Origin: Mesorhizobium sp. NFR06
GTDB lineage: Bacteria; Pseudomonadota; Alphaproteobacteria; Rhizobiales; Rhizobiaceae
Reading direction: 5' to 3'
Length of the DNA: 64,000 nucleotides
Assembly (NCBI RefSeq): GCF_900115245.1
Contig: NZ_FOVT01000001.1
Coordinates: 806,001 to 870,000, forward strand
The position numbers were made by a program, and so were the translations under genes. Shown here piece by piece: positions 1 to 28,901 of the stretch (the stretch's first letter is position 1; the number at the start of each line of letters is the position of its first letter). Under the pieces are notes generated by a model that did not search any database, was not told the origin of the DNA, and worked only from the letters and a program-made list of their open reading frames with translations.

Positions 1-2295
1 CTTGAGCTTCAGCTGGTCGAGCACGCCGTTCCAGGCGCCGGCGAATTCCTTGCCGTAGCGGTCGATGAGCTCGGGCCCGAGCCTGGCCAGGTCCTGGTCG
101 ATGCCGCCCTGTTCGCCGCCGCCGCCAAGCACCCACTGGTCGTCGACCAGCATCTGCGCGATGCGCGCGAGCTGCGGCAGGAAGAAACGATTGAAGCCGA
201 CGCGCGTGTAAAGCCCGGGGACGCGAAGATCGGCGAGCTCGCTGCCGTCCACGCGTTCGAACAACAGCTGTGCCTCAGGCCCGGCCTTTGCCGCGACGGA
301 GAAATCCTGCAGCCGTGCCGCATAGACCGCAGACTTGATCTGCGCCGAGGCGCGGTCGGCAAGGCTCATGCGTCCGAGCGAGCGTTGCGCGGCCTCGACC
401 AGCGGCTGGTTGAGCTCGAAGACCGGATCGTAGGCGTCGTCGAGCGCAAGCATGGCGCGCAGGTGCTTTTCGAGCTGCGCGCGGCCCTCGCGGTTGTTCT
501 CGCCGGGGTAACGGTTCTCTTCCCAATCCTGCTTCATCCAAGAGACGATCAGCTCGTCATCCACCTTCGGCGCCTTGCCGCCCAGCATCAGGTAGATCTT
601 AAGCGGCTCGTAGAGAGCGATCGGATCCGCCATCCTGGCCTGGATCGTCCGCTCGGCCTGAACCAGAAGCCGGGAGCGGAAGGTCCGCTCCAGCGCTTGC
701 CGGTAGGCAGTCCTGGAAGCGGACAGCAGCCTTTCGCGCTGGCTGAGGCCGAACGTCTCTTCGATCGGCTTTCCCTGCTCGGCGTTTTCGAATCCGGCCG
801 GCAGGTTGCGCAACTGGTCGAGCGGATCGATGACGTTTTCGAGATCGACGTCGGTCACCGTCGTGCTCTTCAACAGCGAGTCGGCGCTGTCGCGGTAATG
901 CGCCATGGCTTGCCTTGTGGAGGCGATCAGCGACTTGTTGGCGGAGAAGCTGAGCCCCAGCACGCCGAGCGCCGCCAATGCCGCCAGCGTGATCGCGGCC
1001 AAGCCGCCGAACCTGGCGAGCCTAGAGCGCCGTTCGGCGGCCCTGTCGAAGGAAACCCAACCCGATTCCGGGAAGATCACATTGGCCAGGAGATTGTGCA
1101 GGAAGAAGCTCTTGCCGGTGCCGGAAAGATGCGCTTGCGAGGCGTTGCCGAAACTGCGGCCGATCGCGCCCAGCACCTGGTCGAAGGGCGTCCCTTCCTG
1201 GGTGCCCGACGAAAAATAGAGCCCGCGCAGGCTGACATTGACCTGAGACCGCGAGACATCGAACAGGCTGCCGACAAACCGGGTTATCCGGTCCTTCAGC
1301 GCGCCGAACTGCGCGGGGAAGCCGAACAGCGCGATCCGCGCCACCGGATCGGCCTCTTCCTGCAGGCGGTCGGCAACCTCTTCGGCGAGCCGCCTTGCCA
1401 GCCCGTCGAATTCGGCCGGAGCCTCGCCGGCCATGTTTCTGGTGCGATCGGCGGTCTGGAACGTCGCGCCCCACACCTTGCGCCTGCGCGCCTCGTCGAA
1501 ATCGCCGAAATATTCCATGAAGCCGGAGACGAGATCGGCCTTGGTGAAGAGCAGATAGACCGGGAACTGGATCTTCAGCGTCTCGTGCAATTCGCGCAGG
1601 CGGCTCCTGATTTCGGTGACATTCGCTTCGAGCTGCTGGTCGTCGAAGCCGATCAGATCGGCAAGGCTGATGGCGAGGATCACGCCGTTGATCGGCTGCC
1701 TGGTGCGGTGTTTCTTGAGCAATCCCAGGAATGCGAGCCAACTCGCCTTGTCGCGTTCGCGATCCGACTCCTGCGTCGTGTAGCGGCCGGCGGTATCGAT
1801 CAGCACGGCTTCGTCGGTGAACCACCAGTCGCATGAGCGCGTGCCGCCGACGCCGGCCACCGGCTGCGCGCCGTCGGAGCCGGCAAGCGGAAATTTCAGC
1901 CCGGAATTGACCAGCGCCGTCGTCTTTCCGGCGCCTGGCGGGCCGATGATGATGTACCAGGGAATGTCATAGAGGAAATTGCGCTTGCCGCTCGTTCGCT
2001 TCAGCGTCGCGATGGCTTCGCTCATGCGCGATTCGAGCACCTGGGAATCGTCGTTCCGTTCGTCGCTGCGCGCGATGGCCGTTTCGAGCGCTTTTTGCGC
2101 CTTGCGCCGCTGCCAGAAGCGGACCCCGTAAAACAGCGCAAGCACCGCAACGGTGACCCCGACGATCGTTGATCTGAGCCACACAGGTTCAAGCGGGCGT
2201 GTGTCGGCGAAGCGGATCAGCGGCCCGGCATACCAAACCGCCGCCGCGAAGCCGGCAAGCGCAAGCAGGCTGAAGATCCGCAGCACCCAGCGCAT
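1..2295 (-). CDS. tssM: TssM-like (IcmF) T6SS inner-membrane protein, second copy, 3' end outside window
   Basis: The reading frame is open from the ATG at 2295 to the window edge, giving 765 codons with no stop, so the C-terminus lies to the left. An N-terminal membrane segment (about residues 5-25) and a second one (about 43-60) precede a Walker A motif GPPGAGKTT at about 118-126, followed by IcmF-family sequence (LIDTAGRYTTQ, LTKADLVSGF-like). TssM spans the inner membrane and, with TssL and TssJ, anchors the T6SS baseplate. GGAGA nine bases upstream supports ATG 2295; an in-frame GTG at 2316 sits behind a stronger GGAGGAG with longer spacing and is possible. It follows a TssL-OmpA gene by 25 bases. 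It is distinct in sequence from the complete TssM at 14524-18063. The family call is secure; whether it forms a separate membrane complex is inference. Confidence 0.88.
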   Translation of the reverse strand, partial: MRWVLRIFSLLALAGFAAAVWYAGPLIRFADTRPLEPVWLRSTIVGVTVAVLALFYGVRFWQRRKAQKALETAIARSDERNDDSQVLESRMSEAIATLKRTSGKRNFLYDIPWYIIIGPPGAGKTTALVNSGLKFPLAGSDGAQPVAGVGGTRSCDWWFTDEAVLIDTAGRYTTQESDRERDKASWLAFLGLLKKHRTRQPINGVILAISLADLIGFDDQQLEANVTEIRSRLRELHETLKIQFPVYLLFTKADLVSGFMEYFGDFDEARRRKVWGATFQTADRTRNMAGEAPAEFDGLARRLAEEVADRLQEEADPVARIALFGFPAQFGALKDRITRFVGSLFDVSRSQVNVSLRGLYFSSGTQEGTPFDQVLGAIGRSFGNASQAHLSGTGKSFFLHNLLANVIFPESGWVSFDRAAERRSRLARFGGLAAITLAALAALGVLGLSFSANKSLIASTRQAMAHYRDSADSLLKSTTVTDVDLENVIDPLDQLRNLPAGFENAEQGKPIEETFGLSQRERLLSASRTAYRQALERTFRSRLLVQAERTIQARMADPIALYEPLKIYLMLGGKAPKVDDELIVSWMKQDWEENRYPGENNREGRAQLEKHLRAMLALDDAYDPVFELNQPLVEAAQRSLGRMSLADRASAQIKSAVYAARLQDFSVAAKAGPEAQLLFERVDGSELADLRVPGLYTRVGFNRFFLPQLARIAQMLVDDQWVLGGGGEQGGIDQDLARLGPELIDRYGKEFAGAWNGVLDQLKLK

Positions 2296-2320
2296 CAGTG
2301 CCGTTCTCCGCGGCACCCGC

Positions 2321-3826
2321 TCACAGCGTCTCCTCCTTCGGGATCATGACGTCGACGCGCCTGTTCTTGGCGCGGCCGTCCGCCGTTCCATTGTCGGCGA
2401 TCGGTTCGTCCTCGCCCTTGCCGTCGACATTGAGCCGCGACGGGTCCTTCAAATGCTTGGCCATCATGGCCTGGACGGCTTTCGCCCGGGCGACGGAAAG
2501 ATCGAAATTGGATTTGAACGCGCTCGACTTCTTCGGTTTCACATTGTCGGTGTGGCCGACGATCTTGATCGGTCCGGGTTCGGCATCGAGCGCCGTAGCG
2601 ATGTCGGCCGCGACCGGCTGGAACTGCGGCTTCAGTTCCGCCTGTCCGGATGCGAACAAAAGCTGGTTGTTGATCTCGACGACGATGAACTCGCCCTTCG
2701 TGCCGACGCTCAGTCCGCCGCCCGCGATCTCCTTGGCAAGTGCCGCGCGGATGCGGTCGATCTGGCTGGTGTCCGCGATCGCCGGCGGCGGCGGGCTGGC
2801 TTGCGCCGGTTCGGCGGGGGTCGCCACGCTGGCGCGCTCGATGGTGACGGGCGCCGACGGGTTGAGCGCCAGCAACTCGCCGGCTGTCGCGTCGCCTTCA
2901 TCGGTGATCATGACCCGCAGTCCGAAGAAGGCCGCCGTCACCAACGTCGTTGCGGCGGCCGCGACCGCCCAGAGCGGCAGCCGCGCCCTTGGCTTTGACA
3001 ACGCCGCGGCCATGCCTTGCCAGCGGGGCGAGATCTCGTCGCCGGCGCGTGGCTTGAAGTAACGCAGCGTGTCGTAGACGTCGCGCCGGACACGTTCGAG
3101 GGTGTTTCGTTCGGCCGGCAGCGCCCGATACTGCCCTTCGAAGCCCAGCGACAGGCAGGCATGCATCAGTTCGAGCAGATCGTAATGCGCCTGCGGCGTG
3201 GCCAGCATCTTGTTCAGCGCCTCGTAGAATCCGGCGCCCGTCGGTTGGCTATGAAAGAACTGCGCCACCAGGCTGTGCTGAAGCCAGATGTCGTTGCCCG
3301 GCCAAGGCAAATTGCCGACAAGGTCGTCGGCGGTTTCGCAAAGAGCGAATTTGGCGATCCGCGCGTCTTCTTCCCCAATGCCGGCCTTGGCGATTGTTTG
3401 GTCGAAGGCCTCAATCGCATCGGGCAGATGCTCCGCCAATGGTGCCGCCTGCCGCTCGACCGGCATCAGCCGCAATTGGCCCAGGAGCATCAGCAGCGGT
3501 GCCGCGGCGGCAAGGATCGGATTTGCCGTGACGTATTTTACGGCGCTGGCGGCGTTGAGCAGCGCATCCTGCTGCAGCCCCGGCGCCGCACCCGCGGCCG
3601 CGCCCGCGCTGGGACCTTGAAAGAGCACGGTTCCGGACGACCAGCCGGGCGGCATCTGCGGGCCGCCGCCGGGGTCGAACACGGTCGCTTCGCGGCTGGG
3701 CGATGGAGCAGGCCGAACGCCTTGCGGACCGGGGCTCTCGGGAGCCGCAAGCGGTCTTTGCTTTGGCCGCGGCGCGCGGATGACGGTTTTATCCGCCGGC
3801 CTGGAGGAATCGTCCTTCGAACTCAT
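2321..3826 (-). CDS. tssL: TssL with C-terminal OmpA-like peptidoglycan-binding domain, second copy
   Basis: The 501-residue protein has a Pro-rich N-terminal tail, a DotU/TssL cytoplasmic domain (with LMHACLSLGFEGQYR, a family hallmark), one transmembrane helix around residues 285-305 (LPLWAVAAAATTLV) and an OmpA/MotB-type domain at the C-terminus (IKIVGHTDNVKPKK, NRRVDVMI). TssL binds TssM in the inner membrane, and the OmpA domain would grip peptidoglycan. I start at MSSKDD (3826) because the alternative at 3853 adds only nine atypical residues. It sits between the second TagH and the second TssM, all reading leftward. About 300 bases (3827-4124) separate it from tagH; I see no gene there, only a weak short hairpin. 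Confidence 0.9.
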   Translation of the reverse strand: MSSKDDSSRPADKTVIRAPRPKQRPLAAPESPGPQGVRPAPSPSREATVFDPGGGPQMPPGWSSGTVLFQGPSAGAAAGAAPGLQQDALLNAASAVKYVTANPILAAAAPLLMLLGQLRLMPVERQAAPLAEHLPDAIEAFDQTIAKAGIGEEDARIAKFALCETADDLVGNLPWPGNDIWLQHSLVAQFFHSQPTGAGFYEALNKMLATPQAHYDLLELMHACLSLGFEGQYRALPAERNTLERVRRDVYDTLRYFKPRAGDEISPRWQGMAAALSKPRARLPLWAVAAAATTLVTAAFFGLRVMITDEGDATAGELLALNPSAPVTIERASVATPAEPAQASPPPPAIADTSQIDRIRAALAKEIAGGGLSVGTKGEFIVVEINNQLLFASGQAELKPQFQPVAADIATALDAEPGPIKIVGHTDNVKPKKSSAFKSNFDLSVARAKAVQAMMAKHLKDPSRLNVDGKGEDEPIADNGTADGRAKNRRVDVMIPKEETL

Positions 3827-4124
3827 CGGCGGCGCCCGATCGTCCAGGCACAACGAGTATCGCTTCGCCCGGGCAAGCGCGTTTCAGGCTGAGCCTCGGC
3901 GGCGGGCCGCATGGAAAGGCTCATCTCGCCGAAACATGACATTGCTGCACACGCCCCAAGCCACGCCGCTTACCCGCCAGGCAAGCTTCCCTGCGCATCC
4001 TAATCGCCCAACCATCCAATTGAAACGGGCCTGCCGATTGAAATCGGATTGCAAGATGATCGAAGAGGCGGCTTCTTCTATGAGACCCGTCACATACAGC
4101 CGCCGCGGTCGGTGCGCGCCCCGG

Positions 4125-5204
4125 CTATTTCTGCTTGTCGGTCTTGGCGTAGGTGTCGGCGAAATAGGCGAGGAAGACATCCAGCATGCCGTTCTCGTGC
4201 TTGTCTTCCATCGTCCGCCAGGTCGCGACAAGCGCATCCCAGGCCTGGCTTTTCCTGGACGAGAAGGACGCGGGCGGAATTTTCTTGGCGATCGCCTCCG
4301 GCGACAGGTCGTCGAGCAACCGGGAGAGCGCGGCCTGCATGGCGGCGTAGGTTGCGATTTCGTGCGTCTTCAGATCGCGGAACGCATCCTCGATGCTATG
4401 CCTGGCATCGAGATAGCCGGCCCTGCGCTTGGCAAACATGATCTCCAATATGTCGTCGGTGCCCGGCACGAATTTCAACGGGTTGTTGTCCTCGGCGCCG
4501 ATCATCGTGCGGTGCGCGCTCTTGGCGAGCACCTTTGCCGCCGCGCGCGCCTTGAGCAGCAGCGACAGTTGCTCGACCGTAATCCTCAGCACCGCGCCGA
4601 TCTCGGCCGCGACGTCATGCGGGTCTCGCGACTGCAGCAATTCAGGCGCAATGCCGGCCGCCCTGGCGATCTCCCGCAATATCGCGTCCGCTTGCGCGGG
4701 CCGATTGGCTGGAACTGCGTGGCTGGGCTGCAGCGCCGAGGATGTCGACACGGGCGCCGCCCCGGTCGGGCGCTGCTCCGTCGGGTCGAAGGCCGGCTCG
4801 TGGCCACGATCCAGGGGGCGGCCTGTCGAGGGCGGCGGCTCGCGTTGCGTCGATCCGGTCGTGGCTTGCGGATGTCCGGTCGCGGCTCGTTCGTCTTCGA
4901 TCGAAACGCCGACGACATAACGGCCGATCAACAGCCGGTCGCCCTCAGTCAGCCGATGCGGCCCGGTCATGCGCTGGCTTGAACCGTTGACGAAAGTGCC
5001 GTTGCGCGAAACGTCGTAGAGCCAGAATGAACCCGCCTGGTAGCGGACCTCGCAATGCCGGCCCGAGATGAACTTGTCCGGGTCGGACAGCGTCCAGTCG
5101 CAATTCTCGCGGCCGATTTCGAAGCTGCGATCGCGGGCGGCGTAGCTGGCGCTGGTGCCGGCCGGCAGCCTGTCGACATTGCTGATATGGAGCGAGATGA
5201 ACAT
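4125..5204 (-). CDS. tagH: FHA-domain protein of TagH type, T6SS-associated, second copy
   Basis: The 359-residue protein begins with an FHA domain (about residues 1-105: SFEIGRENCDW, ISGRHCEV, NGTFVNG are the expected FHA signature pieces), passes through a Pro/Thr-rich linker, and ends with the TagH C-terminal domain (NPLKFVPGTDDILE to the C-terminus). FHA domains bind phosphothreonine peptides; in other T6SS systems an FHA protein is the switch read by the PpkA kinase and PppA phosphatase. No such kinase or phosphatase is visible in this window. A larger paralogue is at 21227-22681. The gene is divergent from vgrG across 308 bases and probably heads the leftward TagH-TssL-TssM group. Confidence 0.88.
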   Translation of the reverse strand: MFISLHISNVDRLPAGTSASYAARDRSFEIGRENCDWTLSDPDKFISGRHCEVRYQAGSFWLYDVSRNGTFVNGSSQRMTGPHRLTEGDRLLIGRYVVGVSIEDERAATGHPQATTGSTQREPPPSTGRPLDRGHEPAFDPTEQRPTGAAPVSTSSALQPSHAVPANRPAQADAILREIARAAGIAPELLQSRDPHDVAAEIGAVLRITVEQLSLLLKARAAAKVLAKSAHRTMIGAEDNNPLKFVPGTDDILEIMFAKRRAGYLDARHSIEDAFRDLKTHEIATYAAMQAALSRLLDDLSPEAIAKKIPPASFSSRKSQAWDALVATWRTMEDKHENGMLDVFLAYFADTYAKTDKQK

Positions 5205-5512: not shown

Positions 5513-7837
5513 ATGCCGAACGAACGTGCCACGGTTGTGCAGACGCCGGCCGGCGCCGACCTGACCTTCACCCATCTCATCGGCCGCGATGAGATCAGCC
5601 GTTGTTTCGCCTATACCGTCGGCTTCGTCTCGAAGAACCGCGACGTCGATCCGCTGAAGATGCTGGGCGGTATCGTTTCGGTCGAGGGCGAATCCGATCC
5701 GAAGCGCTGGTTCAGCGGCCTTGCGTCGGATTTCAAGCTTACCCGCATCGAGGACCGGCTGGCCTTTTACGAGGCCACCGTTAGGCCATGGCTCTGGTTT
5801 CTCGGCAACACCACCGATTGCCGTATCTTCCAGAACATGACGGCGGTGGAGATCGTCGAAAAGATATTTTCGAAATATGGCATCGCCAAATTCGAGAAGC
5901 GGCTGCAGGGGTCCTATCCCTCGCGCGAATATTGCGTTCAGTACGACGAGAGCGATCTCGATTTCGTGCAGCGGCTGCTCGAGCACGAAGGCATCTTCTA
6001 TTTCTTCGAGCATGACGAGGGCAAGCACACGCTGGTGCTCTGCGATGCGATGAGCAAGCTGAAGCCGGCGCCCGGTTACGAGAAGGTGCTCTATAATTTC
6101 GAAGGCCAGGCTTCACGGCGCGATGTCGAATACATCACCGAATGGATACCTGGCAGCGCGGTGCGGCCGGCGGCCTACGCCCATACCGACTATGATTTCG
6201 AGAAGCCCGGCGCTGATCTGATGGCGAAGTCCGCCCAGCCGTTCAGCCACAAGGAGGCCTCGGGCGAGAACTATCGCCAGCCCGGCGCGCATCTCGATGT
6301 CGGGCGGGGCGACACGATTGCCGGAATCCGCCGCGAGGAACTTCAGGCCGTGCACCAGCACAGCACGGCGGTGGGTACGGTGCGCGGCCTTTTTTCCGGC
6401 TGCAAGTTCACGCTCGAAAGCTTTCCGCGCGATGACCAGAACCAGGACTATTTGGTGGTCAGCGCCGAGTACCGGCTGTTCGACCCGGGCTACCGGACCC
6501 AGAACGAGGCCCACAGCGAGAATTTCAAGGCGGTGCTTGGCGTGGCGCCCACCAAATTGCCCTACCGCCCGCCGCGCATCACGCCGCGACCGATCATGCG
6601 CGGACCGCAGACCGCGACCGTCGTCGGCCCTTCGGGCGAAGAAATCTTCACCGACAAATATGCGCGGGTGAAGGTGCAGTTCCATTGGGACCGCCTAGGC
6701 AAGAAGGACCAGAACTCCTCCTGCTTCGTGCGCGTGTCGCAGACCTGGGCCGGCAGCGGCTGGGGCTTCATTCAGATCCCGCGCATCGGCCAGGAGGTCA
6801 TCGTCGACTTCATCGAGGGCGATCCGGACCTGCCGATCATCACCGGCCGTGTCTACAACGCGGCTGAGATGCCGCCCTATGGGCTGCCGGCCAACGCCAC
6901 GCAATCAGGCTGGAAGTCGAATTCCTCGAAAGGCGGCGGCGGTTACAACGAGCTGATGTTCGAGGACAAGGCCGGCTCCGAGCTGGTCAACTTCCAGGCC
7001 CAGAAGGATCATCACCTTCTGATCAAGCATGACCGCAACAAGACGGTGCAGCACGACCAGTCCGACCGCATCGACCACGACGCCAAGCACTCCGTCGGCC
7101 ACAAGCTCGACGAGGACGTCGGCAACAACAAGACGGTCAAGATCGGCGTCGACCAGACGACGAATATCGGGTCGAACGATACCGAAACGGTGGGCGCGAA
7201 CCGCTCGCTGACGGTGATGGCAAATGAGACGATCCACGTCGTGGCGAATTCGACGGAGAATATCGATGCGAACCATTCGCAGACGGTGGGGCTCAACCAG
7301 ACGGTCACCGTGGGTGTCGCGCGCGTTGATACGGTGGGGGCAGCGGAAGCGCGAACGGTTGGCGCCTCGCAGACGAACACGATTGGTGCGACACGGTCGG
7401 TGAGCGTAGGGATCAACCAAAGCCACAGCATTGGCGCCGCGGACAGCTGGGACATCGGTGCGGCGCAGACGGTCAACGTCGGCGCGGACCAAAGTGTCAC
7501 CGTCGGAAGCGCTCAGACATTCAGTATCGGTGCGGCGCGCAGCGCCAGTATCGGAGCAGATGATTCGACGAATGTCGGCGGTGCTCATTCATTGGGCATC
7601 GCCAAAGGCAGCTCCATCAGCATCGGCGAGGACAGCACGATCAACGTCGGCAAGAAGCTGGTGATCAATGCCGGCGACGAGATACTGATCCAGACCGGAT
7701 CCGCCAAGATCATGATGAAGAAGGACGGCTCGATCGCGATCGAGGGCAAGGATATCTCGGTCAAGGGATCGGGCAACATCGTTATCAAGGCATCGGGCGA
7801 CATCACCATGAAGGGCTCGAAGATTGCGGAGAATTAG
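5513..7837 (+). CDS. vgrG: VgrG (TssI) spike protein of T6SS
   Basis: The 774-residue protein has the full VgrG plan: gp27-like part (to about residue 360), gp5 OB-fold part (about 365-460, with YARVKVQFHWDR, WAGSGWGFIQIPRIGQEV and DFIEGDPDLPIITGRVYN), then a long C-terminal needle of octapeptide repeats and a short beta-rich tail. VgrG trimers cap the Hcp tube and carry PAAR proteins and effectors. There is no extra enzymatic domain, so effectors are probably loaded as separate proteins. The ATG follows a strong GAGGAGGGG. The gene heads a plus-strand cassette with the DUF6484 gene (8 bases apart) and a TIGR02270 gene, and faces the effector module encoded on the other strand. Confidence 0.96.
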   Translation: MPNERATVVQTPAGADLTFTHLIGRDEISRCFAYTVGFVSKNRDVDPLKMLGGIVSVEGESDPKRWFSGLASDFKLTRIEDRLAFYEATVRPWLWFLGNTTDCRIFQNMTAVEIVEKIFSKYGIAKFEKRLQGSYPSREYCVQYDESDLDFVQRLLEHEGIFYFFEHDEGKHTLVLCDAMSKLKPAPGYEKVLYNFEGQASRRDVEYITEWIPGSAVRPAAYAHTDYDFEKPGADLMAKSAQPFSHKEASGENYRQPGAHLDVGRGDTIAGIRREELQAVHQHSTAVGTVRGLFSGCKFTLESFPRDDQNQDYLVVSAEYRLFDPGYRTQNEAHSENFKAVLGVAPTKLPYRPPRITPRPIMRGPQTATVVGPSGEEIFTDKYARVKVQFHWDRLGKKDQNSSCFVRVSQTWAGSGWGFIQIPRIGQEVIVDFIEGDPDLPIITGRVYNAAEMPPYGLPANATQSGWKSNSSKGGGGYNELMFEDKAGSELVNFQAQKDHHLLIKHDRNKTVQHDQSDRIDHDAKHSVGHKLDEDVGNNKTVKIGVDQTTNIGSNDTETVGANRSLTVMANETIHVVANSTENIDANHSQTVGLNQTVTVGVARVDTVGAAEARTVGASQTNTIGATRSVSVGINQSHSIGAADSWDIGAAQTVNVGADQSVTVGSAQTFSIGAARSASIGADDSTNVGGAHSLGIAKGSSISIGEDSTINVGKKLVINAGDEILIQTGSAKIMMKKDGSIAIEGKDISVKGSGNIVIKASGDITMKGSKIAEN
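7180..7660 (+). repeat. In-frame octapeptide repeats in the VgrG needle
   Basis: Within vgrG the protein repeats every eight residues, with the pattern x-x-[VI]-G-A/x-x-x-[ST] (for example QTVGLNQT, NTIGATRS, VNVGADQS, FSIGAARS), close to twenty consecutive units, corresponding to 24-bp steps in DNA. The same VxGxxxxx spacing builds the triple-stranded beta-helix of the T4 gp5 needle. Units near the start (IHVVANST, ENIDANHS) are degenerate. Confidence 0.85.
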
Positions 7838-14000: not shown

Positions 14001-14542
14001 CAGCTGGTCTCCCAACTCGCGGCGAAGATCTGCTCCAGCGTCGGTTGCGGCGCCTGCGGATCGACGTCGAAAATATCCGTATGCGCCGTCCACATGACGA
14101 GGTCGCTGATGACATCGCTTTCGCCATCGACCAACGGAGCCGGCAGGTTGACCAGCGCCGTGTCGAGCTCGTCGGGCGTCAACTCTCCGCGTTGCGCGGC
14201 GAAGGCTGCGCTCTCGATGCCATCGAACCACCCATCGCAATAGGCAAGCTTCAGCGGCGCCTCCGAAAGCCGGGCGACCACGCTCAACGGAAATCGCCGG
14301 CCGACCCGGTCGGCGCTTTGCAGCACGATGCCCGCCGAGGCGCCGAAGGAACCAGGACCGCTGAGGAAGCGCAGCGCCGTGTTCTGCGGCCAGGCTTCGA
14401 CCCCGAACAGCGGCACGATGTGCTGCGCCAGCCAGCGGTCCCAGCCGCGCACGAAATCGCCCGGCAGCCGCCGCGTGACGAAGTCGCCGGCGGCGGGCAT
14501 CTTGCCGTAGAAGCCGGGCAGGATCAGATCTGCGGCGGACAT
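14000..14542 (-). CDS. tagF: TagF, T6SS-associated regulator
   Basis: The 180-residue protein matches the TagF N-terminal domain: LPGFYGKMPAAGDFVTRRLP, WDRWLAQ, GPGSFGASAGIVLQSADRVGR, FPLSVVA. TagF proteins repress T6SS assembly after translation, often working with an FHA protein; in some bacteria TagF is fused to PppA, but here it is alone and no PppA domain follows. The ATG at 14542 lies inside the end of tssM (19-base overlap), and its stop overlaps the DUF2169 start by one base. Confidence 0.88.
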   Translation of the reverse strand: MSAADLILPGFYGKMPAAGDFVTRRLPGDFVRGWDRWLAQHIVPLFGVEAWPQNTALRFLSGPGSFGASAGIVLQSADRVGRRFPLSVVARLSEAPLKLAYCDGWFDGIESAAFAAQRGELTPDELDTALVNLPAPLVDGESDVISDLVMWTAHTDIFDVDPQAPQPTLEQIFAASWETS

Positions 14543-17500
14543 GTGAACTTCTTGAACATTTCGAGTGTGTAGGGGTTCTCGACGCTGGCCGCCTTGAGCT
14601 CGAAATCGGCCCACATCCCCTTGGTGCCGAGCCGCAGGCTGTAGACGTCGGTGAGCTTGGTCGCGGCGAAGCGGCCGCCGCGCAGCATTCTCAGCCACGC
14701 CCAGCTCCCGGTCTCGTTGAGCATCACTTCGGGCGAGCCGTCGACCGGCTGGAAGGCGAGCGAGATCACGCCGGTGCCGTCCTTGCCCGGCCATGTCATC
14801 GGCTGCGGCCTGGTCGCGTTGTTGTAGTAGACGAGGTTCTGGCCATCGAGGTTGAGCGTCACCCGCGCCACGTTGGGCGACAGGTCCTTGGGCTCCAGCG
14901 TGAAGTTCATCACCGGGCCGGTGCCGCCGGGAAACAGGTCGTCGCGGATATGCCTTGCCTGCTCGAACGCGGCGAGCGCCGCCGGGTCGAGGCCGAAATC
15001 GGCTCGCCATTTCCACGGCTCGCTGGCGGTGTCGACATAGTTGATCAGATGGTCGTTGGTGAAGGCGTCGATCAGCCCGGTCGGTCCGAATAGGCGCTGG
15101 AAGTCGCGCACGTTGACGTCGACCGCGCTTTCCGGGCTGAACGGATAGCGGTTGTTGAGCGCGGCCTGGCAGAACGGCAATATATCCGCCCGCCAGATGG
15201 CGTTCAGCTCGTTGGTGACCGCCTTCTGCGACAGGCCGCTGGTGTCGCCGGCAATGCCGCCCAGCCAGTCGTTGATCGGCGAAGGCAGGATCTGCGCCTG
15301 CCTGGCGACCGCCCCTGTCAGTTCGGCGAGGCCGCCCTGCTTCTTGATCGCGTCCTGCGGATCGGGGTTGGCGGTCACGGTCTGCAGCACGTTGGACAGC
15401 GCCGTCAGCGCCACGACCGCGGCGTCGAGCGCCGGCGGCTGGCCGTCGACCTGCGCGATCGTGCCCTTGAGCGGCTTGAAATGCTCGGCCACCAGGCTGC
15501 CAGTCATGTCGACCTGATCGGCCGAGCCAGCGCGGGGCAACAATTTCGCTCCCGTCTTCACCACCTTGCCCAATTTGCCGAGCTTGCTGAGCAGCTTCGA
15601 ACCGGTCTTGGCGGCGCCGCTCTTGTCGTCGGCCGGCGCCTCGTCGGAGCGTGTCAGGTCGGTCTCCTGCACCACGGCTGTCAGCAATCGCTTCAGCGCG
15701 GAGTCGGCGCTGGACAGATCCTTGAGGTTCTCGCTGGCGACGTTGAGGTCCGTCAGTGGCGCGAGCCGCATGTCACGCAGGAAACTATCCCACTGCGCGA
15801 TATAATCATCGTAATAGAGCTTCAGGATGTCCTCGGACAGCGCCGAGACCGACGTCTCGGAGTTCTCCGAGCAGCCGCCGGCAAACACCGCGCGATCTAG
15901 CGCCGCCTGGCCGGCGACATCCTCGACGCGGTCGAGGATCGCGTCGTGAAAGCCAGCATAGGTGTAGGGGCCGGGAACGCCGACGCGCAGCGTCTTGTCG
16001 GAGCGGCGTGCGAACACCTTGGCGCCGTTCGGTCCGGCGAAATTGGCCGGCACCCATTCCTTGACGGCCGTCACTTCGGGGTCGGCCAGAAGCTGCTTGT
16101 AGGCGCGCTCCGGCAGCGAGATCGTGCACACCGTCTTCAGCGCCTCCGCGACCAGCTCCTTGTCCGGGGCGATGTAGCTGTCGTCGACGGCCATGCGGCG
16201 GATCGCGGCCAGCTGGTGCCCTTCGGCATCCGCGGTCGGAAAGGGCGGAGCCGGCGCGAATTGCGGCAGGCTGTTCACCCACCAGTTCTGGACGAAATCG
16301 GTGTCCATCTGCGACAGGCCGGTCATCATCCGGTAGGTCTTCAGCGCGCCGAGCATGAAGTCCGGATCGCGGATCTGCCGCCACATCGTGGCCTCGAGCA
16401 GCGCGACCATATGTGGCTCGAGCACATTGCGCAGCGCATGATCATAAGTGTCGGCCTGCGCGCGCACCAACTCCGGCGAAGCGGTCGGGCCGAGCAGATT
16501 GTGGACGGCATCCGGCGGTGCGGTGCGCGCCGTCGCCACCGCGTCCATCGCCGCCAGCGCGCCGTCCATGGTCGGCTGCTCGACCGACGCCGGCATGGCG
16601 GCGACGTCGGTGAGTGGCGCCTGCAGCGCTTCGAACTGGCCGGCCTGTTCGGTGATCGCATTGCGGTTGTCGAGGTAGGACCAGGTGAACAGCCCGCTGG
16701 CGAGCAAGGCGGCGAGCGCGCAAGCGGCGGCGGCACCACGCCAGATCCAGGCGCGGCGGCGTTGCGCCAGCGGGTCGAATGTGCCGAGGCCGGCTTCCTT
16801 GAAGATCACTTCGGTCAGGAGGTTCCTGAGGAAGAAGCTGCGCTTTTCGACGCGTGATGCCGGCATGGCGCGGCGCGGCGGCAGCCCGAAGGAGGACGAC
16901 AGCGCCGCCGTCAGCCGGTCGATCGGCGCGCCTTCCTGCGTCGCCGAGGTCAAATAGAGGCCGCGCAGCCAGGCGGCTTCCTCGTAGCGGCTCTCGCCGA
17001 ACATCGCCTCGACCAGCACCTGGATCGGCTCGGACAGGCTGGCAAGCTGCGCCGGGAAACGGAAGATGTCGGCCCGCTGGCCGAGCTTGTCCTCGTCCTC
17101 GAGCCGCGGCACCAGCCGCCGCTCCAGTTCGGTGGCAAGCCTGGCGAGTTCCGCCTGGATGGTGGCGGCGTTGACACGGGCATCGAGCGCAAAAGTGGTT
17201 CCCCACACCTGCTCGCGCGCCGTCGTCGACAAGCCGCCGAAGAAGGCTTCGAACCCTTTGACCAGGTCGGCCTTGGTCAGCATCAGGTAGACTGGCAGGC
17301 GGATTTCGAGCCGATCGTTCAGCTCCGCCAGCCGGCGGCGAATCTTGCGCCCATGCGCCTTGATCGCTTCCTCACCCTCCGAGAGCGCGTCGATCGACAG
17401 CGCGACGATGACGCCGTTGAGCGCGCGCCGGCCCCGGTGCTTCTTCAACAGGTCGAGGAAACCCAGCCATTCCGCCGCGTCGACGTCCGGCTGGCTCTCC

Positions 17501-18063
17501 TGCTGGACGTAACGGCCCGCGGTATCGATCAGCACCGCGTTCTCGGAGAAGAACCAGTCGCAATTGCGCGTGCCGCCGACGCCCTGCAGATCATCGGTCA
17601 GGTCGATCGGAAAGTTGAGGCCCGACTGGCGCAGTGCCGTGGTCTTGCCTGTGGCCGGAGGACCGACGATCACGTACCACGGCATCTCGCGCAGGAATTT
17701 GCGGCCGCCGAGCTTGCGCCGCTTCAGCTCTGCCATTACCTCGCCGAACTTGGCGCCGACCGCGGCGACGCTCTCCTCGCCCGGCGTAAGCTGCTTTTCC
17801 TGAACCGGCGCCGCGATCTCGGCAACGAACATGCGGTTGGCGCGGATCGCGCGGCGTTGCGCGATGATGAGCCAGATCAGCCACAGGATGATCAGCCCCG
17901 CGATGATGGCGATGCGCACATTGTCGGATTCGAACGGCGCATAGGGGCCGACCTGCACGATCGGGCCGAATACCCAGATCAACAGCGAAAGCAGCGCAAT
18001 GCCGATCAGCGTCCATAGGAATCGCGAGGTGATGACGGCCCAGAGGAAGCGCAGGATGAACAT
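14524..18063 (-). CDS. tssM: TssM (IcmF), T6SS inner-membrane complex
   Basis: The complete 1179-residue TssM has transmembrane helices at about residues 10-32 and 50-68, a Walker A motif GPPATGKT at 134-141, the DTAGRYVQQ motif, IcmF domain sequence, a third helix near 435-460, and a long periplasmic part whose C-terminus includes the conserved FTLEPKDLSPNVARVTLNLDGQ block. TssM links TssL to the outer-membrane lipoprotein TssJ. The gene starts one base after the tssL stop and overlaps tagF by 19 bases. Length is normal for the family. A second, diverged TssM is at the left window edge. Confidence 0.97.
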   Translation of the reverse strand: MFILRFLWAVITSRFLWTLIGIALLSLLIWVFGPIVQVGPYAPFESDNVRIAIIAGLIILWLIWLIIAQRRAIRANRMFVAEIAAPVQEKQLTPGEESVAAVGAKFGEVMAELKRRKLGGRKFLREMPWYVIVGPPATGKTTALRQSGLNFPIDLTDDLQGVGGTRNCDWFFSENAVLIDTAGRYVQQESQPDVDAAEWLGFLDLLKKHRGRRALNGVIVALSIDALSEGEEAIKAHGRKIRRRLAELNDRLEIRLPVYLMLTKADLVKGFEAFFGGLSTTAREQVWGTTFALDARVNAATIQAELARLATELERRLVPRLEDEDKLGQRADIFRFPAQLASLSEPIQVLVEAMFGESRYEEAAWLRGLYLTSATQEGAPIDRLTAALSSSFGLPPRRAMPASRVEKRSFFLRNLLTEVIFKEAGLGTFDPLAQRRRAWIWRGAAAACALAALLASGLFTWSYLDNRNAITEQAGQFEALQAPLTDVAAMPASVEQPTMDGALAAMDAVATARTAPPDAVHNLLGPTASPELVRAQADTYDHALRNVLEPHMVALLEATMWRQIRDPDFMLGALKTYRMMTGLSQMDTDFVQNWWVNSLPQFAPAPPFPTADAEGHQLAAIRRMAVDDSYIAPDKELVAEALKTVCTISLPERAYKQLLADPEVTAVKEWVPANFAGPNGAKVFARRSDKTLRVGVPGPYTYAGFHDAILDRVEDVAGQAALDRAVFAGGCSENSETSVSALSEDILKLYYDDYIAQWDSFLRDMRLAPLTDLNVASENLKDLSSADSALKRLLTAVVQETDLTRSDEAPADDKSGAAKTGSKLLSKLGKLGKVVKTGAKLLPRAGSADQVDMTGSLVAEHFKPLKGTIAQVDGQPPALDAAVVALTALSNVLQTVTANPDPQDAIKKQGGLAELTGAVARQAQILPSPINDWLGGIAGDTSGLSQKAVTNELNAIWRADILPFCQAALNNRYPFSPESAVDVNVRDFQRLFGPTGLIDAFTNDHLINYVDTASEPWKWRADFGLDPAALAAFEQARHIRDDLFPGGTGPVMNFTLEPKDLSPNVARVTLNLDGQNLVYYNNATRPQPMTWPGKDGTGVISLAFQPVDGSPEVMLNETGSWAWLRMLRGGRFAATKLTDVYSLRLGTKGMWADFELKAASVENPYTLEMFKKFTCPPQI

Positions 18064-18064
18064 C

Positions 18065-19393
18065 TCAGAGCCTCTTCTCGACCAGGACCTCGACGCGCCG
18101 GTTGAGCGCGCGGCCCTCGCGCGTCGAGTTGTCGGCGACGGGATCCGTGTCGGCGCGGCCCTCCGAATGGATGCGCTCCTGCGGTACGCCGGCCTGCACC
18201 AGCATGTCCGCTATGGTTTGGGCACGTGCCTCCGAGAGCCGTTGATTGCTCGAAAGCGGATTGGACTTCTGCAGGCGCACATTGTCGGTGTGGCCGACGA
18301 TCGTGATGTTTCCGATCAGCTCCTGATTGGCGAGGATCACCTTGGCGATCGACTCTATCAGCGGCTCATAGCCTTGGCTCAGTGTCGGTCGCGAAGACTG
18401 GAACAGCTCAGGATTGGAGGACTGAACGATCAGCTTGGCCAGCGAGACGCTCTCGGTGCCGCTCAGCGCCCCCTTGAGGCTGTCCGGCGCTTCGGCCTTG
18501 AATTCGGGCAGCAGCGCAAAATCGACCGGCTGCGGCGGCTCGGGTTCGGGAGCATCCTGCTTCGGCGCGGCGCGGGTAACGTCGCCGCGCGAGGCCGGCG
18601 GCAGCGTGCGCACCAGTGCCGAGAGTTCCACCGCCTGGCTGCTCAGGCCCATCGACAGGCCAATGTAAGCGGTGGCGGCGACGACGACCGCGGCAAGCAC
18701 CATCACCCAGATCGGCACGATGAAGCGCTGCGGCTCGTCGGAGGCGATGACGCCTTTCCAGTTCGGCGACAGCGGCGCGTCCTCGGCATCGGCATTGCGC
18801 AGGAAGCGCGCCGCCGCCACGCGAACCGCATTGAGCGAACGGTCGCCGGCGCGGCCGGGCACTCGATACTTGCCGCGGAAGCCTAACGCCAGGCAGTAAT
18901 ACTGCAGTTCCAGCATCTCGCGGTCGCGGTTGGGGTGGCGCTCCAACTCGTCGAGGCGCGAGAAGAACTGCGTGCCGGCATCCACGTCGCCGCGCAGCAT
19001 GACGACCAGTGGCTGGCGCGGCCAGGCGCTGGCGCCGCCCCACGGCGTGTTGAGCGCGAGGTCGTCGAGCAGCGCCGCCACCGCCCAGGCGGCCTGGTCG
19101 GCGCGCTCCAGCGATGAACCCGCGGCAATAGCGGCATCGCGAGCCCGCACCAGCTCGTCGAGCAGGCGCGTGCGCATCACTTCCGGGTTCTCCGGCGCCA
19201 GCGCGCTCTCGAGCTCCGGCGCGAACTCGAGCAGCGGCGCGAAGATGTTGATCAAAATGTTGGGATGCGCGCGCGCCCGCTTCGCCGGGGCGCCCGGCGC
19301 CAGCGGCGCCATCGGCCGGGGCGCAGCGCCGGTCAGCCGAATGCGTGTGCGCTCGCGATCCTCCGACAGTCCGAAAGGATCATCCCGGCTCAT
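18065..19393 (-). CDS. tssL: TssL with OmpA-like C-terminal domain
   Basis: The 442-residue protein contains a DotU/TssL cytoplasmic domain (LELQYYCLALGFRGKYRV), one transmembrane helix at about residues 225-250 (PIWVMVLAAVVVAATAYIG), and a C-terminal OmpA/MotB domain (ITIVGHTDNVRLQKSNPLSSNQ-type region with SEARAQTIADML and NRRVEVLVE). It inserts in the inner membrane with TssM and can bind peptidoglycan through the OmpA part. It lies five bases after tssK and one base before tssM. The sequence differs clearly from the second TssL at 2321-3826, although the domain order is the same. Confidence 0.96.
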   Translation of the reverse strand: MSRDDPFGLSEDRERTRIRLTGAAPRPMAPLAPGAPAKRARAHPNILINIFAPLLEFAPELESALAPENPEVMRTRLLDELVRARDAAIAAGSSLERADQAAWAVAALLDDLALNTPWGGASAWPRQPLVVMLRGDVDAGTQFFSRLDELERHPNRDREMLELQYYCLALGFRGKYRVPGRAGDRSLNAVRVAAARFLRNADAEDAPLSPNWKGVIASDEPQRFIVPIWVMVLAAVVVAATAYIGLSMGLSSQAVELSALVRTLPPASRGDVTRAAPKQDAPEPEPPQPVDFALLPEFKAEAPDSLKGALSGTESVSLAKLIVQSSNPELFQSSRPTLSQGYEPLIESIAKVILANQELIGNITIVGHTDNVRLQKSNPLSSNQRLSEARAQTIADMLVQAGVPQERIHSEGRADTDPVADNSTREGRALNRRVEVLVEKRL

Positions 19394-19397: not shown

Positions 19398-20732
19398 TCA
19401 CCTGTTCACCGAATAGCAATCGACCTGCGGCTCGCTCGGCAGGACACCGGAAACGCCGATGACGAAGCCTGGGGCGTCGAGCAGCGAGGCCCAGTGCTCG
19501 CTCTTCTGGTCGAGCTCCAGGCATAGCCGGTCGCCATCATAGGGGATCTCGCGCGGCTGCGAATGGAGCGGTTTCAGCGGAATGCCGGGCAGGCGCGACT
19601 TCCACAGCCCTTCGAACTGGTCGGCGGCGCCCACAGTCGCCTGGTTGACGAAGATCTTGCGCAGCGCGTCTTCCGAAAGCTCGGAGCCGACGCGGATGAC
19701 AATACGGCTGGCGACCAGGAGCTTCGGGTTGTCGATGCGCACCTTCCAGACATTGGTGGCGTGCCGCATCACTGGCAGCGCGCGCGATTTCGGCTCGATG
19801 TAGCGCAGGCTGAGGATGAGCGAACGCAAGGCGTCGGCCAGCGCCATATAGGCGGGGCCGGGCGCCATGTGGTCGTAGGCCGGCAATTCGCCGAGCCGGC
19901 GCGAGCTCGACCCGTAGGTGGCCATCTCGCCGGCGAGGCCTGCAAGTTCGAGATAGAGCTCGGCCGGGTGGAAGACATCCTGTGCCAGCATATGCGCAAG
20001 GCGCGGCCGCGCGGCATTGGCGAGATGCAGCATCAAAAGATCCTCGACGCTGCGGCCGGCGCCGCCCATCACCATCTTGCCATGCGCCTCGGCGATCTGG
20101 TCGAGGCCGGTGACGACCTCCTGCAGCAATTGCCGGTACCAGTGGACGGCACCGGTGATCAGCGTCGGCGGCAGGAACGTCTCGTCGAGCGAAATGCCGC
20201 CATCGGCGCGTACGCCTTTGATATCGGCGATCGGCAGGGCGGTGTAACCGCCGACCGATTTGCCGGGCGCCAGCAGCACTGCTTGCGGCCGGGCGACCTC
20301 GATCTCCTCCGGATCGGCGCCGCCCTGGACGGCGTCCCGCACCGGGACGATCTTGCCGTGGTAGCGCGCGCCCGTCGATGCCGCATGCGCAGGATCGAAT
20401 CCGACGCCGCCGGGCGGCTCGAGCGGCAGCGCGACCAGCACCGGGCCGGCGCCGGTGTCGGCCGTTACCGGCAGCGGCTTCGGCGCGTCCATCAACTCCG
20501 GGATGGAGAAGGGTGTGCCGTCCGGGAAGATACCCCGGGCGGAGACGATCGAAATCTGCCCGGCATCGAGCAGCGACTGGTCGAGCGTCAGCTGCTGGAA
20601 GCCGAACGTATGGAGCTGGCCGGCCTGCAATGCGCCGCGCACCATGCCTTCGAAGAACCGATCCTGCTGCTGGAAGTGCTGGGTCCTCAAGAAGAGGCCC
20701 TCCGACCACAGCACCCTGTTTGCGTCGCTCAT
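19398..20732 (-). CDS. tssK: TssK, T6SS baseplate protein
   Basis: The 444-residue protein starts MSDANRVLWSEGLFLRTQHFQQQDRF, the standard TssK opening, and keeps conserved blocks such as FDPAHAAS, LPIADIKG and SLRYIEPKSRALPV. TssK trimers connect the baseplate wedges (TssEFG) to the TssJLM membrane complex. I chose the ATG at 20732 because it matches the family start and follows an AGAGAG; an upstream in-frame ATG adds 24 unrelated residues. It lies between tssJ and tssL. Confidence 0.95.
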   Translation of the reverse strand: MSDANRVLWSEGLFLRTQHFQQQDRFFEGMVRGALQAGQLHTFGFQQLTLDQSLLDAGQISIVSARGIFPDGTPFSIPELMDAPKPLPVTADTGAGPVLVALPLEPPGGVGFDPAHAASTGARYHGKIVPVRDAVQGGADPEEIEVARPQAVLLAPGKSVGGYTALPIADIKGVRADGGISLDETFLPPTLITGAVHWYRQLLQEVVTGLDQIAEAHGKMVMGGAGRSVEDLLMLHLANAARPRLAHMLAQDVFHPAELYLELAGLAGEMATYGSSSRRLGELPAYDHMAPGPAYMALADALRSLILSLRYIEPKSRALPVMRHATNVWKVRIDNPKLLVASRIVIRVGSELSEDALRKIFVNQATVGAADQFEGLWKSRLPGIPLKPLHSQPREIPYDGDRLCLELDQKSEHWASLLDAPGFVIGVSGVLPSEPQVDCYSVNR

Positions 20733-20769
20733 GCTGCCACTCTCTGCACTGCCATCCCTTGTCTCGCCG

Positions 20770-21222
20770 TCAGGCGGAGATACCGCCCTTGCCGAGGCTG
20801 ACATTGATGGTGAATTTCGAACCTGGCGATACCGATTTGGTCGTGCGCCAGTTGCGTCCGCCGGGCTCGCGGATCAGCGCCACGAAGCCGAGCGCCGTCG
20901 CGTTCGGCTCGACCGTGATGGTCTTGGCCGCCGTCTTGCCGGTCGCCACCGAAATCGCGTCGGACCCGATGAGATCGGCGCCGAGCGCCGAGCTCGCGTC
21001 GCCTTGCAACGCGAAATAATCGGCCGAGTTGAACTTGCCGGTGCTGGCAAGCCGCATCACCAGCACGGTCACCGGCCGGTCGCCGCCGCCCGGTCCCGGA
21101 TTCATGCCGGCGCCGCCGGTCACGTTGACCGAGATAACCGATGGTTTCGGGGGGCCGCTCTGGCAAGCAGCAAGCAGCCCCGTGGCGCCGATGGCAACGA
21201 TGAATTCGCGTCTGTCGATCAT
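20770..21222 (-). CDS. tssJ: TssJ, T6SS outer-membrane lipoprotein
   Basis: The 150-residue protein starts MIDRREFIVAIGATGLLAAC: a short positive N-region, hydrophobic core and lipobox LAAC, so the mature protein should begin at Cys20 and be lipidated. The rest fits TssJ (VNVTGGAGMNPG, VLVMRLASTGKFNSADYF). TssJ contacts the periplasmic end of TssM. AGGAG seven bases upstream supports the ATG at 21222; it overlaps the end of the FHA gene closely, with the stop at 21227. Confidence 0.92.
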   Translation of the reverse strand: MIDRREFIVAIGATGLLAACQSGPPKPSVISVNVTGGAGMNPGPGGGDRPVTVLVMRLASTGKFNSADYFALQGDASSALGADLIGSDAISVATGKTAAKTITVEPNATALGFVALIREPGGRNWRTTKSVSPGSKFTINVSLGKGGISA

Positions 21223-25583: not shown

Positions 25584-25584
25584 C

Positions 25585-26337
25585 TCAGGTCTCCCGGAAT
25601 TCGGTTCGCGCCAGGCCGTTGTCGAGATTGATCGTGGTGCGCAGCCGCATGCGTTCCGGCGTCGGCGTCATGATCAGCACGGCGTCGATCTCGATCTTGA
25701 GGCCGACGCTTTTGTCGCCGAGCGTGACGTTGACGGTCGTGGCGCTTTCCTTGAGACGCGGCTCGAAGGTAGCGAGCACCGCGCGGATCTCGCGCGCCAG
25801 GGTATCGCGGTCGAAATCGCGCGACGAGCGGCCCGAAAAGGACGGCACGCCATAATTGACGACGCTGCGGCGCACTTCCGGAAAGTCGGCGAGCGGCGGC
25901 AGTTCGTCCAGCGGCTGTTCGTGCTCGGCATCGGAAAGCATCGGCATGGACTCGAAACGCTCGGTGTTGAACAGGGCCTCGATGTCGCGCCGGACGGCTT
26001 CCCGCAGCACGCGCGCCGACACGACAACGCCGCGGCTTTCGATTTCGGCGCGATGCTCGGTCTGGAACACCAGTCGGTGCAACCGCCGTTTCTGCTCGGA
26101 GGTAAGTTCGGCATCGGCGTCGATGGCGCGCGCGCTGCCGGCGAGGAGAGCCTCCACGCGCTCGGCGCCGAGTTCTTCTTCCAGCAGACGGCGCAGCCCG
26201 TCGATCTCGGACGTCAGCCCGGGCAAGTCGTTGACGAGGCGATCCCAGAGGGAGGGCTGGACCGCCTCGCGCTTCGCCCGCGAGCTGCCGGCAAGCTGCG
26301 ATTTCGCGCCAGCCCGCTTGGCCTCACTTGCCGACAT
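25585..26337 (-). CDS. tssE: TssE, gp25-like T6SS baseplate protein
   Basis: The 250-residue protein contains the gp25/TssE core in its C-terminal half (VNYGVPSFSGRSSRDFDRDTLAREIRAVLATFEPRL, conserved as VxNYGLP and I-x-x-FEPRL at about residues 160-200). It is longer than many TssE proteins because of about 80 extra N-terminal residues rich in Lys, Arg, Leu and Glu, predicted to be helical. The start overlaps the end of hcp by 14 bases, so the extension could be partly a start-choice artefact, but PSLWDRLVNDLP near residue 28 looks genuine TssE sequence. Confidence 0.92.
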   Translation of the reverse strand: MSASEAKRAGAKSQLAGSSRAKREAVQPSLWDRLVNDLPGLTSEIDGLRRLLEEELGAERVEALLAGSARAIDADAELTSEQKRRLHRLVFQTEHRAEIESRGVVVSARVLREAVRRDIEALFNTERFESMPMLSDAEHEQPLDELPPLADFPEVRRSVVNYGVPSFSGRSSRDFDRDTLAREIRAVLATFEPRLKESATTVNVTLGDKSVGLKIEIDAVLIMTPTPERMRLRTTINLDNGLARTEFRET

Positions 26338-26800: not shown

Positions 26801-26850
26801 TGTCTTTCTCCACCGCTTTCAAACGAAACAAGACGACTATGCTTGCGATT

Positions 26851-28356: not shown

Positions 28357-28359
28357 GAC

Positions 28360-28896: not shown

Positions 28897-28901
28897 GCTC
28901 G

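What the first reader, a model, noticed from the sequence alone, without database searches (positions are those of the whole stretch)
1..5204. A second TagH-TssL-TssM set beside a complete T6SS operon
The sequence shows two full families in duplicate: FHA/TagH (4125 and 21227), TssL-OmpA (2321 and 18065) and TssM (1 and 14524). All other core parts (TssA-K, Hcp, ClpV) occur once. The copies are clearly diverged, so this is not a recent duplication. Possible readings are an alternative membrane complex sharing one baseplate, a second T6SS extending to the left, or an accessory IcmF/DotU pair with another role.
Basis: partly seen in the sequence, partly recalled or inferred. Interest (0 to 1): 0.6.

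Follow-up and report, generated by a model that had tools for sequence, protein, structure and literature searches.

The report
Second membrane-complex module in Mesorhizobium T6SS
A toxin-injecting nanomachine (type VI secretion system) of the soil bacterium Mesorhizobium has one injection tail but two different sets of membrane-anchor genes; the second set was captured from another kind of type VI system, together with its control switch and cell-wall-cutting enzyme, and relatives of this machine always carry it or a different stand-in.

Summary
In detail: TagH, TssL and TssM each occur twice (25-32% identity); the genome has one TssC, TssK and TssJ. Beyond the window edge the second set continues: TagH2-TssL2-TssM2-PP2C phosphatase-Ser/Thr kinase-DUF1036-membrane-anchored M23 peptidase with a lytic-transglycosylase domain. 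By tree and gene order it is the envelope and phosphorylation half of another, TssJ-less T6SS type (complete in Bradyrhizobium and other Rhizobiaceae) that has lost TssK, TagF and the ClpV-TssA tail block. It was probably captured twice. It is under purifying selection and tracks TssM1 across 20 genomes of 10 genera. Relatives of the main T6SS without it (Rhizobium, Sinorhizobium, Paracoccus, Sulfitobacter) carry a different second IcmF instead: a short DotU-IcmF fusion with an M15 peptidase, PP2C and OmpA protein. All 43 plasmid-borne relatives have exactly one of the two. Best reading: this T6SS lineage uses an accessory IcmF envelope module, phosphorylation-gated and coupled to its own peptidoglycan hydrolase; function is inferred. 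Not excluded: two exchangeable membrane complexes on one tail, or mixed TssM1/TssM2 complexes.

The parts
1..2316 (-). TssM2 (IcmF family), C-terminal end cut by the window edge; whole gene L004:8765-12316, 1183 aa. Farther left, outside the window (window position = L004 position minus 10000): PP2C phosphatase L004:7868-8710, Ser/Thr kinase L004:5349-7871, DUF1036 L004:4837-5337, M23 peptidase plus lytic transglycosylase L004:2417-about 4840, caspase plus PG-binding L004:598-2193, OmpA protein ending at L004:521 (+)
   Evidence: TIGR03348 1270 bits, Pfam IcmF domains, Walker A GPPGAGKT; tree places it in the TssJ-less M2-type T6SS clade
2321..3853 (-). TssL2: DotU cytoplasmic domain, transmembrane stretch, periplasmic OmpA peptidoglycan-binding domain; N-terminal KTVIR threonine motif (candidate phosphorylation site)
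   Evidence: Pfam PF09850 and PF00691, TIGR03350 over cut-off; motif seen in most TssL2 homologues
4125..5204 (-). TagH2 (Fha): FHA phosphothreonine-binding domain plus T6SS_FHA_C
   Evidence: Pfam PF00498 and PF20232, TIGR03354
3854..4124 (.). Gap between TagH2 and TssL2 where the parental T6SS type (Bradyrhizobium L066-L068) has tssK; no tssK remnant found
5513..7837 (+). VgrG (tssI), divergent from the second set
   Evidence: Pfam
14524..18063 (-). TssM1, TssM of the complete T6SS
   Evidence: TIGR03348 1279 bits, Walker A GPPATGKT; M1 clade
18065..19393 (-). TssL1 (DotU plus OmpA), N-terminal RTRIR threonine motif
19398..20804 (-). TssK, the only one in the genome
20770..21240 (-). TssJ lipoprotein, the only one in the genome
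21227..22774 (-). TagH1 (Fha)
22678..30077 (-). TssG, TssF, TssE, Hcp, TssC (only one in the genome), TssB, TssA of the complete T6SS
   Evidence: Pfam
30375..33254 (+). ClpV (TssH)
   Evidence: Pfam AAA/ClpB domains; orthologue annotated tssH in M. ciceri

Best explanation
The second set is a retained envelope-and-control module of a different, TssJ-less T6SS type (here called M2), joined to a TssJ-containing T6SS (M1) and stripped of its own tail, baseplate and ClpV genes. It is now a constant part of a hybrid T6SS. Proposed mechanism: TssL2 and TssM2 form an inner-membrane assembly held to the cell wall by OmpA domains. The kinase and phosphatase set the phosphorylation of a threonine in the TssL2 N-terminus, which TagH2 reads, as PpkA and Fha do on TssL in Agrobacterium. 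The module's own membrane-anchored hydrolase (M23 endopeptidase plus lytic transglycosylase) opens the peptidoglycan where the single M1 tail and TssJLM1 complex assemble. It fills the slot that in Rhizobium and Rhodobacterales members of the same T6SS lineage is filled by a DotU-IcmF fusion with M15 peptidase, PP2C and OmpA protein. Shown by sequence: gene content, origin, co-inheritance, selection, mutual exclusion of the two module types. Inferred: association with the M1 tail, phosphorylation, peptidoglycan opening.
For: One tail, two TssM: 15 family genomes have exactly 2 IcmF and 1 TssC; none of 385 class genomes shows a linked pair apart from the window's own. Origin: paired TssM2 nests inside TssM of complete single-TssM systems, and in L231-L234 the order M23-OmpA-TagH2 equals that of the complete G080 cluster (L236) with the ClpV-TssA block and VgrG removed. 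Retained set: TagH2, TssL2, TssM2, PP2C and M23 in 20/20 genomes, kinase in 16/20. Two captures favoured (p-AU 0.028). Distances TssM1 vs TssM2 r=0.93; dN/dS 0.15; Walker A kept in 24/24. Replacement: 38 of 38 M1-type plasmid records without the M2 module carry the DotU-IcmF fusion and the 5 M. ciceri records carry M2; L228/L229 show it beside M15, PP2C and OmpA genes. Wall enzyme: M23 Pfam hit and phiKZ gp144 transglycosylase match, E 7e-7. Precedents: PpkA phosphorylates TssL Thr14 and Fha binds it (PMC3953482); TagX is a T6SS-dedicated peptidoglycan hydrolase (PMC5061870).
Against: No expression, interaction or secretion data exist here. TssM2 evolves about 2.5 times faster than TssM1 and 3-6 times faster than its sister in complete systems, which also fits partly relaxed constraint. 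The kinase hit is missing in 4 of 20 genomes, so phosphorylation gating cannot be essential everywhere unless another kinase serves. The M23 hydrolase came with the parental T6SS, so its linkage to TssM2 is inherited and not independent support. The KTVIR threonine motif is only a candidate site and is missing from several homologues. The DotU-IcmF fusion lacks the NTPase domain, so the two module types may not work alike.
Confidence: 0.57

Rival explanations
1. Two exchangeable membrane complexes on one tail: TssL2-TssM2 forms a complete, TssJ-independent membrane complex that can dock the same TssK baseplate, giving an alternative launch site used under other conditions.
For: TssM2 and TssL2 are full-length with intact Walker A; their ancestors served as the only membrane complex in TssJ-less systems; the module has its own Fha, kinase and phosphatase, which would allow separate control.
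Against: The TssK that these proteins evolved with was lost and the remaining TssK is very different (about 145-170 bits against 760-990 for M1-type TssK in relatives). In the alternative module type of the same lineage the second IcmF has no NTPase domain and only a fragment of DotU, so it is unlikely to be a stand-alone complex.
Confidence: 0.15
2. Mixed membrane complex: TssM1 and TssM2 (and TssL1 and TssL2) assemble together as unequal subunits of one complex.
For: Tight co-inheritance and correlated divergence; exclusive replacement by a second IcmF-like protein, so the slot is always filled.
Against: Only 31-32% identity; no direct evidence of contact; correlated distances are expected for any linked, vertically inherited genes.
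Confidence: 0.1
3. Leftover of a second T6SS that is decaying and has no present function.
For: It is clearly a partial T6SS; it evolves faster than TssM1 and than its complete-system sisters; kinase missing in 4 of 20 genomes.
Against: dN/dS 0.15 for TssM2, Walker A intact in all homologues examined, retained in 20 genomes of 10 genera and apparently after two separate captures.
Confidence: 0.08
4. A T6SS-independent envelope function (cell-wall remodelling or another secretion system) that merely lies next to the T6SS.
For: The module has wall-binding and wall-cutting proteins and no tail genes; IcmF/DotU pairs also serve type IVB secretion systems (general knowledge).
Against: In the family sample the module was only found in genomes with an M1-type T6SS or as part of a complete M2-type T6SS, fragmented assemblies aside; TssM2 is far below the type IVB IcmF cut-off, 188 against 1000 bits.
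Confidence: 0.1

Closest known systems
Complete TssJ-less M2-type T6SS of Bradyrhizobium and other Rhizobiaceae (L066-L068; G156, G218, G080)
   Same: TagH2, TssL2, TssM2, PP2C and kinase in recognisably the same order; in the Rhizobiaceae members also DUF1036, M23 hydrolase and OmpA gene
   Different: The window module lacks TssK, TagF, ClpV and all tail and baseplate genes and sits beside another T6SS
T6SS of Rhizobium etli / R. phaseoli plasmids (probably the R. etli Mim1 type, PMC10215855)
   Same: Same M1-type core (67-70% TssM1 identity) with DUF2169, ketoacyl-synthase-like and DUF6484 genes, and also a second IcmF-like gene with PP2C, OmpA and a cell-wall peptidase
   Different: The second IcmF is a short DotU-IcmF fusion without NTPase, with M15 instead of M23 peptidase; no TssL2-TssM2
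Agrobacterium tumefaciens T6SS phosphorylation pathway (PpkA, TssL Thr14, Fha; PMC3953482)
   Same: Kinase, phosphatase, Fha and a TssL with an N-terminal threonine motif
   Different: There they act on the only TssL; here they sit with the second TssL, and phosphorylation is untested
Acinetobacter T6SS: TagX peptidoglycan hydrolase (PMC5061870) and TssJ-less five-protein membrane complex (PMC10564176)
   Same: TssJ-less complex type with extra envelope proteins and a T6SS-dedicated peptidoglycan hydrolase
   Different: Acinetobacter compensates for a missing TssJ; here a TssJ complex is present and a TssJ-less one is added; enzyme family differs (M23 plus transglycosylase)

Membership tests
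Complete type VI secretion system (second set as its own T6SS) | Tail and baseplate core (TssA, B, C, E, F, G, K, Hcp) and ClpV | tested here: not met
   Only one TssC and one TssK in the whole genome, both in the main operon; none encoded beside the second set
T6SS membrane subunit TssM (TIGR03348) | Full-length IcmF with NTPase, IcmF-related, helical and C2-like domains | tested here: met
   1270 bits against cut-off 388; all four Pfam domains; Walker A GPPGAGKT
T6SS TssL, long form (TIGR03350) | DotU domain plus C-terminal OmpA domain | tested here: met
   TIGR03350 163 bits against 140, DotU and OmpA
TssJLM membrane complex | Cognate TssJ lipoprotein for the second TssM | tested here: not met
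   Single TssJ, encoded in the TssM1 operon; the 17 genomes with only M2-type TssM searched have no TssJ match
TssJLM membrane complex | TssL2 and TssM2 assemble and dock a baseplate | not testable with these tools
   Needs biochemistry or microscopy
T6SS threonine phosphorylation pathway | Ser/Thr kinase, PP2C phosphatase and Fha encoded together | tested here: met
   Pkinase, PP2C, FHA plus T6SS_FHA_C; kinase hit missing in 4 of 20 paired genomes
T6SS threonine phosphorylation pathway | Phosphorylated threonine on TssL or Fha | tested here: inconclusive
   KTVIR-like motif near the TssL2 N-terminus in most but not all homologues; no phosphorylation data
Type IVB secretion IcmF/DotU | Scores over the IVB-specific IcmF model | tested here: not met
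   NF038226 188 bits against cut-off 1000; TssL2 does exceed the loose IcmH/DotU model NF038228 (110 against 50) but also passes the T6SS long-form model
Peptidoglycan hydrolase | M23 zinc motifs and transglycosylase glutamate, membrane anchor | tested here: met
   M23 Pfam 114 bits; HxxxD and HxH present; match to phiKZ gp144 at residues 620-748 with invariant Glu628; N-terminal hydrophobic stretch. Activity not tested

The most novel reading that the evidence does not exclude
A whole T6SS lineage works with two unlike IcmF assemblies per machine: a TssJ-dependent TssLM1 complex and an obligatory second IcmF module of separate origin (TssLM2, or a DotU-IcmF fusion) that carries the wall-opening enzyme and the phosphorylation switch. 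The membrane complex of these T6SSs would then be a two-module structure unlike the standard single TssJLM ring.
Probability: 0.35. Interest if true: 0.78.

Novelty: new variant of a known kind. Interest (0 to 1): 0.6.

Why it matters
The standard T6SS model has one TssJLM complex per machine. Here a T6SS clade found in Rhizobium, Sinorhizobium, Mesorhizobium and Rhodobacterales relatives always carries, in the samples examined, a second IcmF module of separate origin with a peptidoglycan hydrolase and phosphorylation genes. That makes an open question, how the T6SS crosses and is anchored in its own cell wall and how assembly is licensed, directly testable by deleting one small operon in genetically tractable rhizobia. 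It also explains why automatic counts can report extra or incomplete T6SSs in these genomes.

Tried and rejected
Complete second T6SS to the left: rejected by whole-genome searches for TssC and TssK. Recent tandem duplication: rejected by 25-32% identity and separate clades. Decayed tssK or tagF in the intergenic gaps: nothing above noise. AlphaFold model of the M23 protein from 19 homologues: mean pLDDT 44, unusable, so no fold search was made. Literature: no paper found that discusses the second set. One table lists 'tagH, tssLM' a second time for M. japonicum Opo-242 without comment (PMC10223793). Wu et al. note that R. etli/leguminosarum/phaseoli loci are collinear either with the agrobacterial locus or with one common to Mesorhizobium (PMC8546570). 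The R. etli Mim1 effector paper does not contain the words ImcF or IcmF in its main text (PMC10215855).
Full report
What is there. The window lies in a Mesorhizobium genome of 6.16 Mb, 40 contigs (G000:C1:806001-870000; nearest named TssM2 matches are Mesorhizobium at up to 92%). A complete T6SS operon runs from TssA (30077) down to TssM1 (14524), with ClpV divergent at 30375. Left of VgrG a second set is found: TagH2 (4125-5204), TssL2 (2321-3853), TssM2 (1-2316, running about 1.2 kb beyond the window edge). Reading on to the left (L004) gives PP2C phosphatase, Ser/Thr kinase, DUF1036, an M23 peptidase and a caspase-like protein with a PG-binding domain, all on the same strand, then an OmpA protein on the other strand.

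Is it a second T6SS? No. The genome has two IcmF, two DotU and two T6SS_FHA_C matches, but one TssC, one TssK and one TssJ. The two copies share 31% (TssM), 32% (TssL) and 25% (TagH) identity.

How widespread. In a sample of 297 genomes of the same family, 15 genomes have exactly two IcmF matches of this kind and one TssC, with the two IcmF genes 14-20 kb apart on one strand where both lie on one contig. Fetched loci confirm the arrangement by sequence in 19 sampled genomes including the window's own, in G252 (genes on separate contigs) and in the M. ciceri plasmid; the 20 loci tabulated belong to 10 genera if M. ciceri is counted with the window's genus. In a sample of 385 genomes of the class, no linked pair was seen except in the window's own genome.

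Where it came from. In a tree of 119 TssM proteins all TssM1 form one clade with full support (24 rows), which includes Rhizobium, Sulfitobacter and Paracoccus plasmid systems. TssM2 belongs to another clade whose other members are the TssM of complete T6SSs (Bradyrhizobium L066-L068, and genomes G156, G218, G080, G160, G132, G020 and others), and paired TssM2 nests inside it. A second tree puts the G104/G176 pair apart from the other paired TssM2; holding all together is rejected at p-AU 0.028, so two captures are favoured, though replacement by recombination is not excluded. Gene order agrees. In complete systems the order is TssK-TssL2-TssM2-TagF-PP2C-kinase-DUF1036-M23, then the ClpV-TssG-F-E-C-B-A block on the other strand, OmpA, VgrG, TagH2 (L162, L164, L235, L236, L243). 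In G064, G104, G165 and G176 the order is TssL2-TssM2-PP2C-kinase-DUF1036-M23-OmpA-TagH2: the same cluster with TssK, TagF, the tail block and VgrG removed. No tssK remnant is left in the window gap. The complete M2-type systems have no TssJ: 0 of 17 such genomes, while every genome with an M1-type system has one in the M1 operon.

Is it kept by selection? In 20 paired loci TagH2, TssL2, TssM2, PP2C and M23 are present in all, the kinase in 16. Within Mesorhizobium the median dN/dS is 0.15 for TssM2, 0.21 for TssL2, 0.14 for M23, against 0.07 for TssM1 and 0.04 for TssC. The P-loop is intact in 24 of 24. Protein distances of TssM1 and TssM2 correlate at r = 0.93, with TssM2 about 2.5 times faster. 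Since its split from the G156/G218 lineage, paired TssM2 has changed 3-6 times more than the sister in complete systems. So it is under constraint, but the constraint changed after capture.

The same slot is filled differently elsewhere. M1-type T6SSs on plasmids: 5 Mesorhizobium ciceri records carry the M2 module; the other 38 records (Rhizobium, Sinorhizobium, Sulfitobacter, Pseudosulfitobacter, Paracoccus, Rhodobacter) do not, and exactly those 38 carry a short 'ImcF-related' protein matched over at least 80% of its length. Where annotated or read, it sits beside an M15 peptidase, a PP2C phosphatase and an OmpA protein, with a kinase gene elsewhere in the cluster in several. It matches the start of DotU at its N-terminus, then IcmF-related and IcmF C-terminal domains, and has no NTPase domain. 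Genomes G194 and G202 in the family sample show the same arrangement. Two module types of different make-up thus share a second IcmF, an OmpA domain, a cell-wall peptidase and a PP2C/kinase pair, and exclude each other. On the TssM1 tree the fusion type is at the base (Rhodobacterales, then Rhizobium), so the M2 module most likely displaced it. The nearest outside relative (L187, G427) has one TssM only.

How it may work. The 'M23' protein has an N-terminal hydrophobic stretch and is predicted to be anchored in the inner membrane; after the M23 domain a stretch (620-748) matches the phiKZ gp144 lytic transglycosylase (E 7e-7) with an invariant glutamate at 628. TssL2 has an OmpA domain. Fha, kinase and phosphatase form a full phosphorylation set, and TssL2 has a KTVIR-type threonine motif near its start in most homologues. 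In A. tumefaciens PpkA phosphorylates Thr14 of TssL, which Fha then binds (PMC3953482). In Acinetobacter a dedicated hydrolase, TagX, is needed for T6SS biogenesis (PMC5061870) and the TssJ-less membrane complex needs extra envelope proteins (PMC10564176). Inference: the module is an accessory, phosphorylation-gated envelope assembly that anchors and opens the cell wall for the single T6SS tail. That TssM2 contacts the M1 machine is not shown.

Limits. No experiment is available. Genus names of most sampled genomes are hidden codes. TssA, B, E, F, G, Hcp and ClpV were not counted genome-wide. The structure prediction failed. The paper library lacks most subscription journals, so an earlier description of the second set could have been missed; gene lists that include it without comment do exist (PMC10223793).

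Noticed in passing
L141, L147, L149 (G143, G207, G261), L126 (G015), L050, L051, L065 (Aminobacter): The Ser/Thr kinase next to the second set is not found while the PP2C phosphatase is kept, apparently lost in two lineages.
   Followed up: partly
L228:26426-28864 (-), L229:26566-29019 (-), L154, L155: Short 'ImcF-related' proteins are fusions of a DotU N-terminal fragment to the periplasmic part of IcmF, without the NTPase domain; a T6SS protein architecture I have not seen described.
   Followed up: partly
window 9387-14240: Between VgrG and TssM1 lies an effector/immunity-like block: TsiV-type immunity, SUKH protein, ketoacyl-synthase-like protein, DUF2169 adaptor; content differs between strains.
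   Followed up: no
G017, G050, G190 and many other family genomes: Two TssC-like genes lie in tandem in many other T6SS clusters of the family, a duplicated sheath subunit distinct from the TssM case.
   Followed up: no
L004:598-2193 and L003:13699-19206: Several caspase-like (C14) genes lie next to the second set in this genome; caspase-like genes also lie near T6SS loci in Bradyrhizobium and Paracoccus.
   Followed up: no
G840 (L218), same genus: A genome of the same genus whose only TssM found by the search is of another T6SS type, so the M1 system is not universal in the genus.
   Followed up: no
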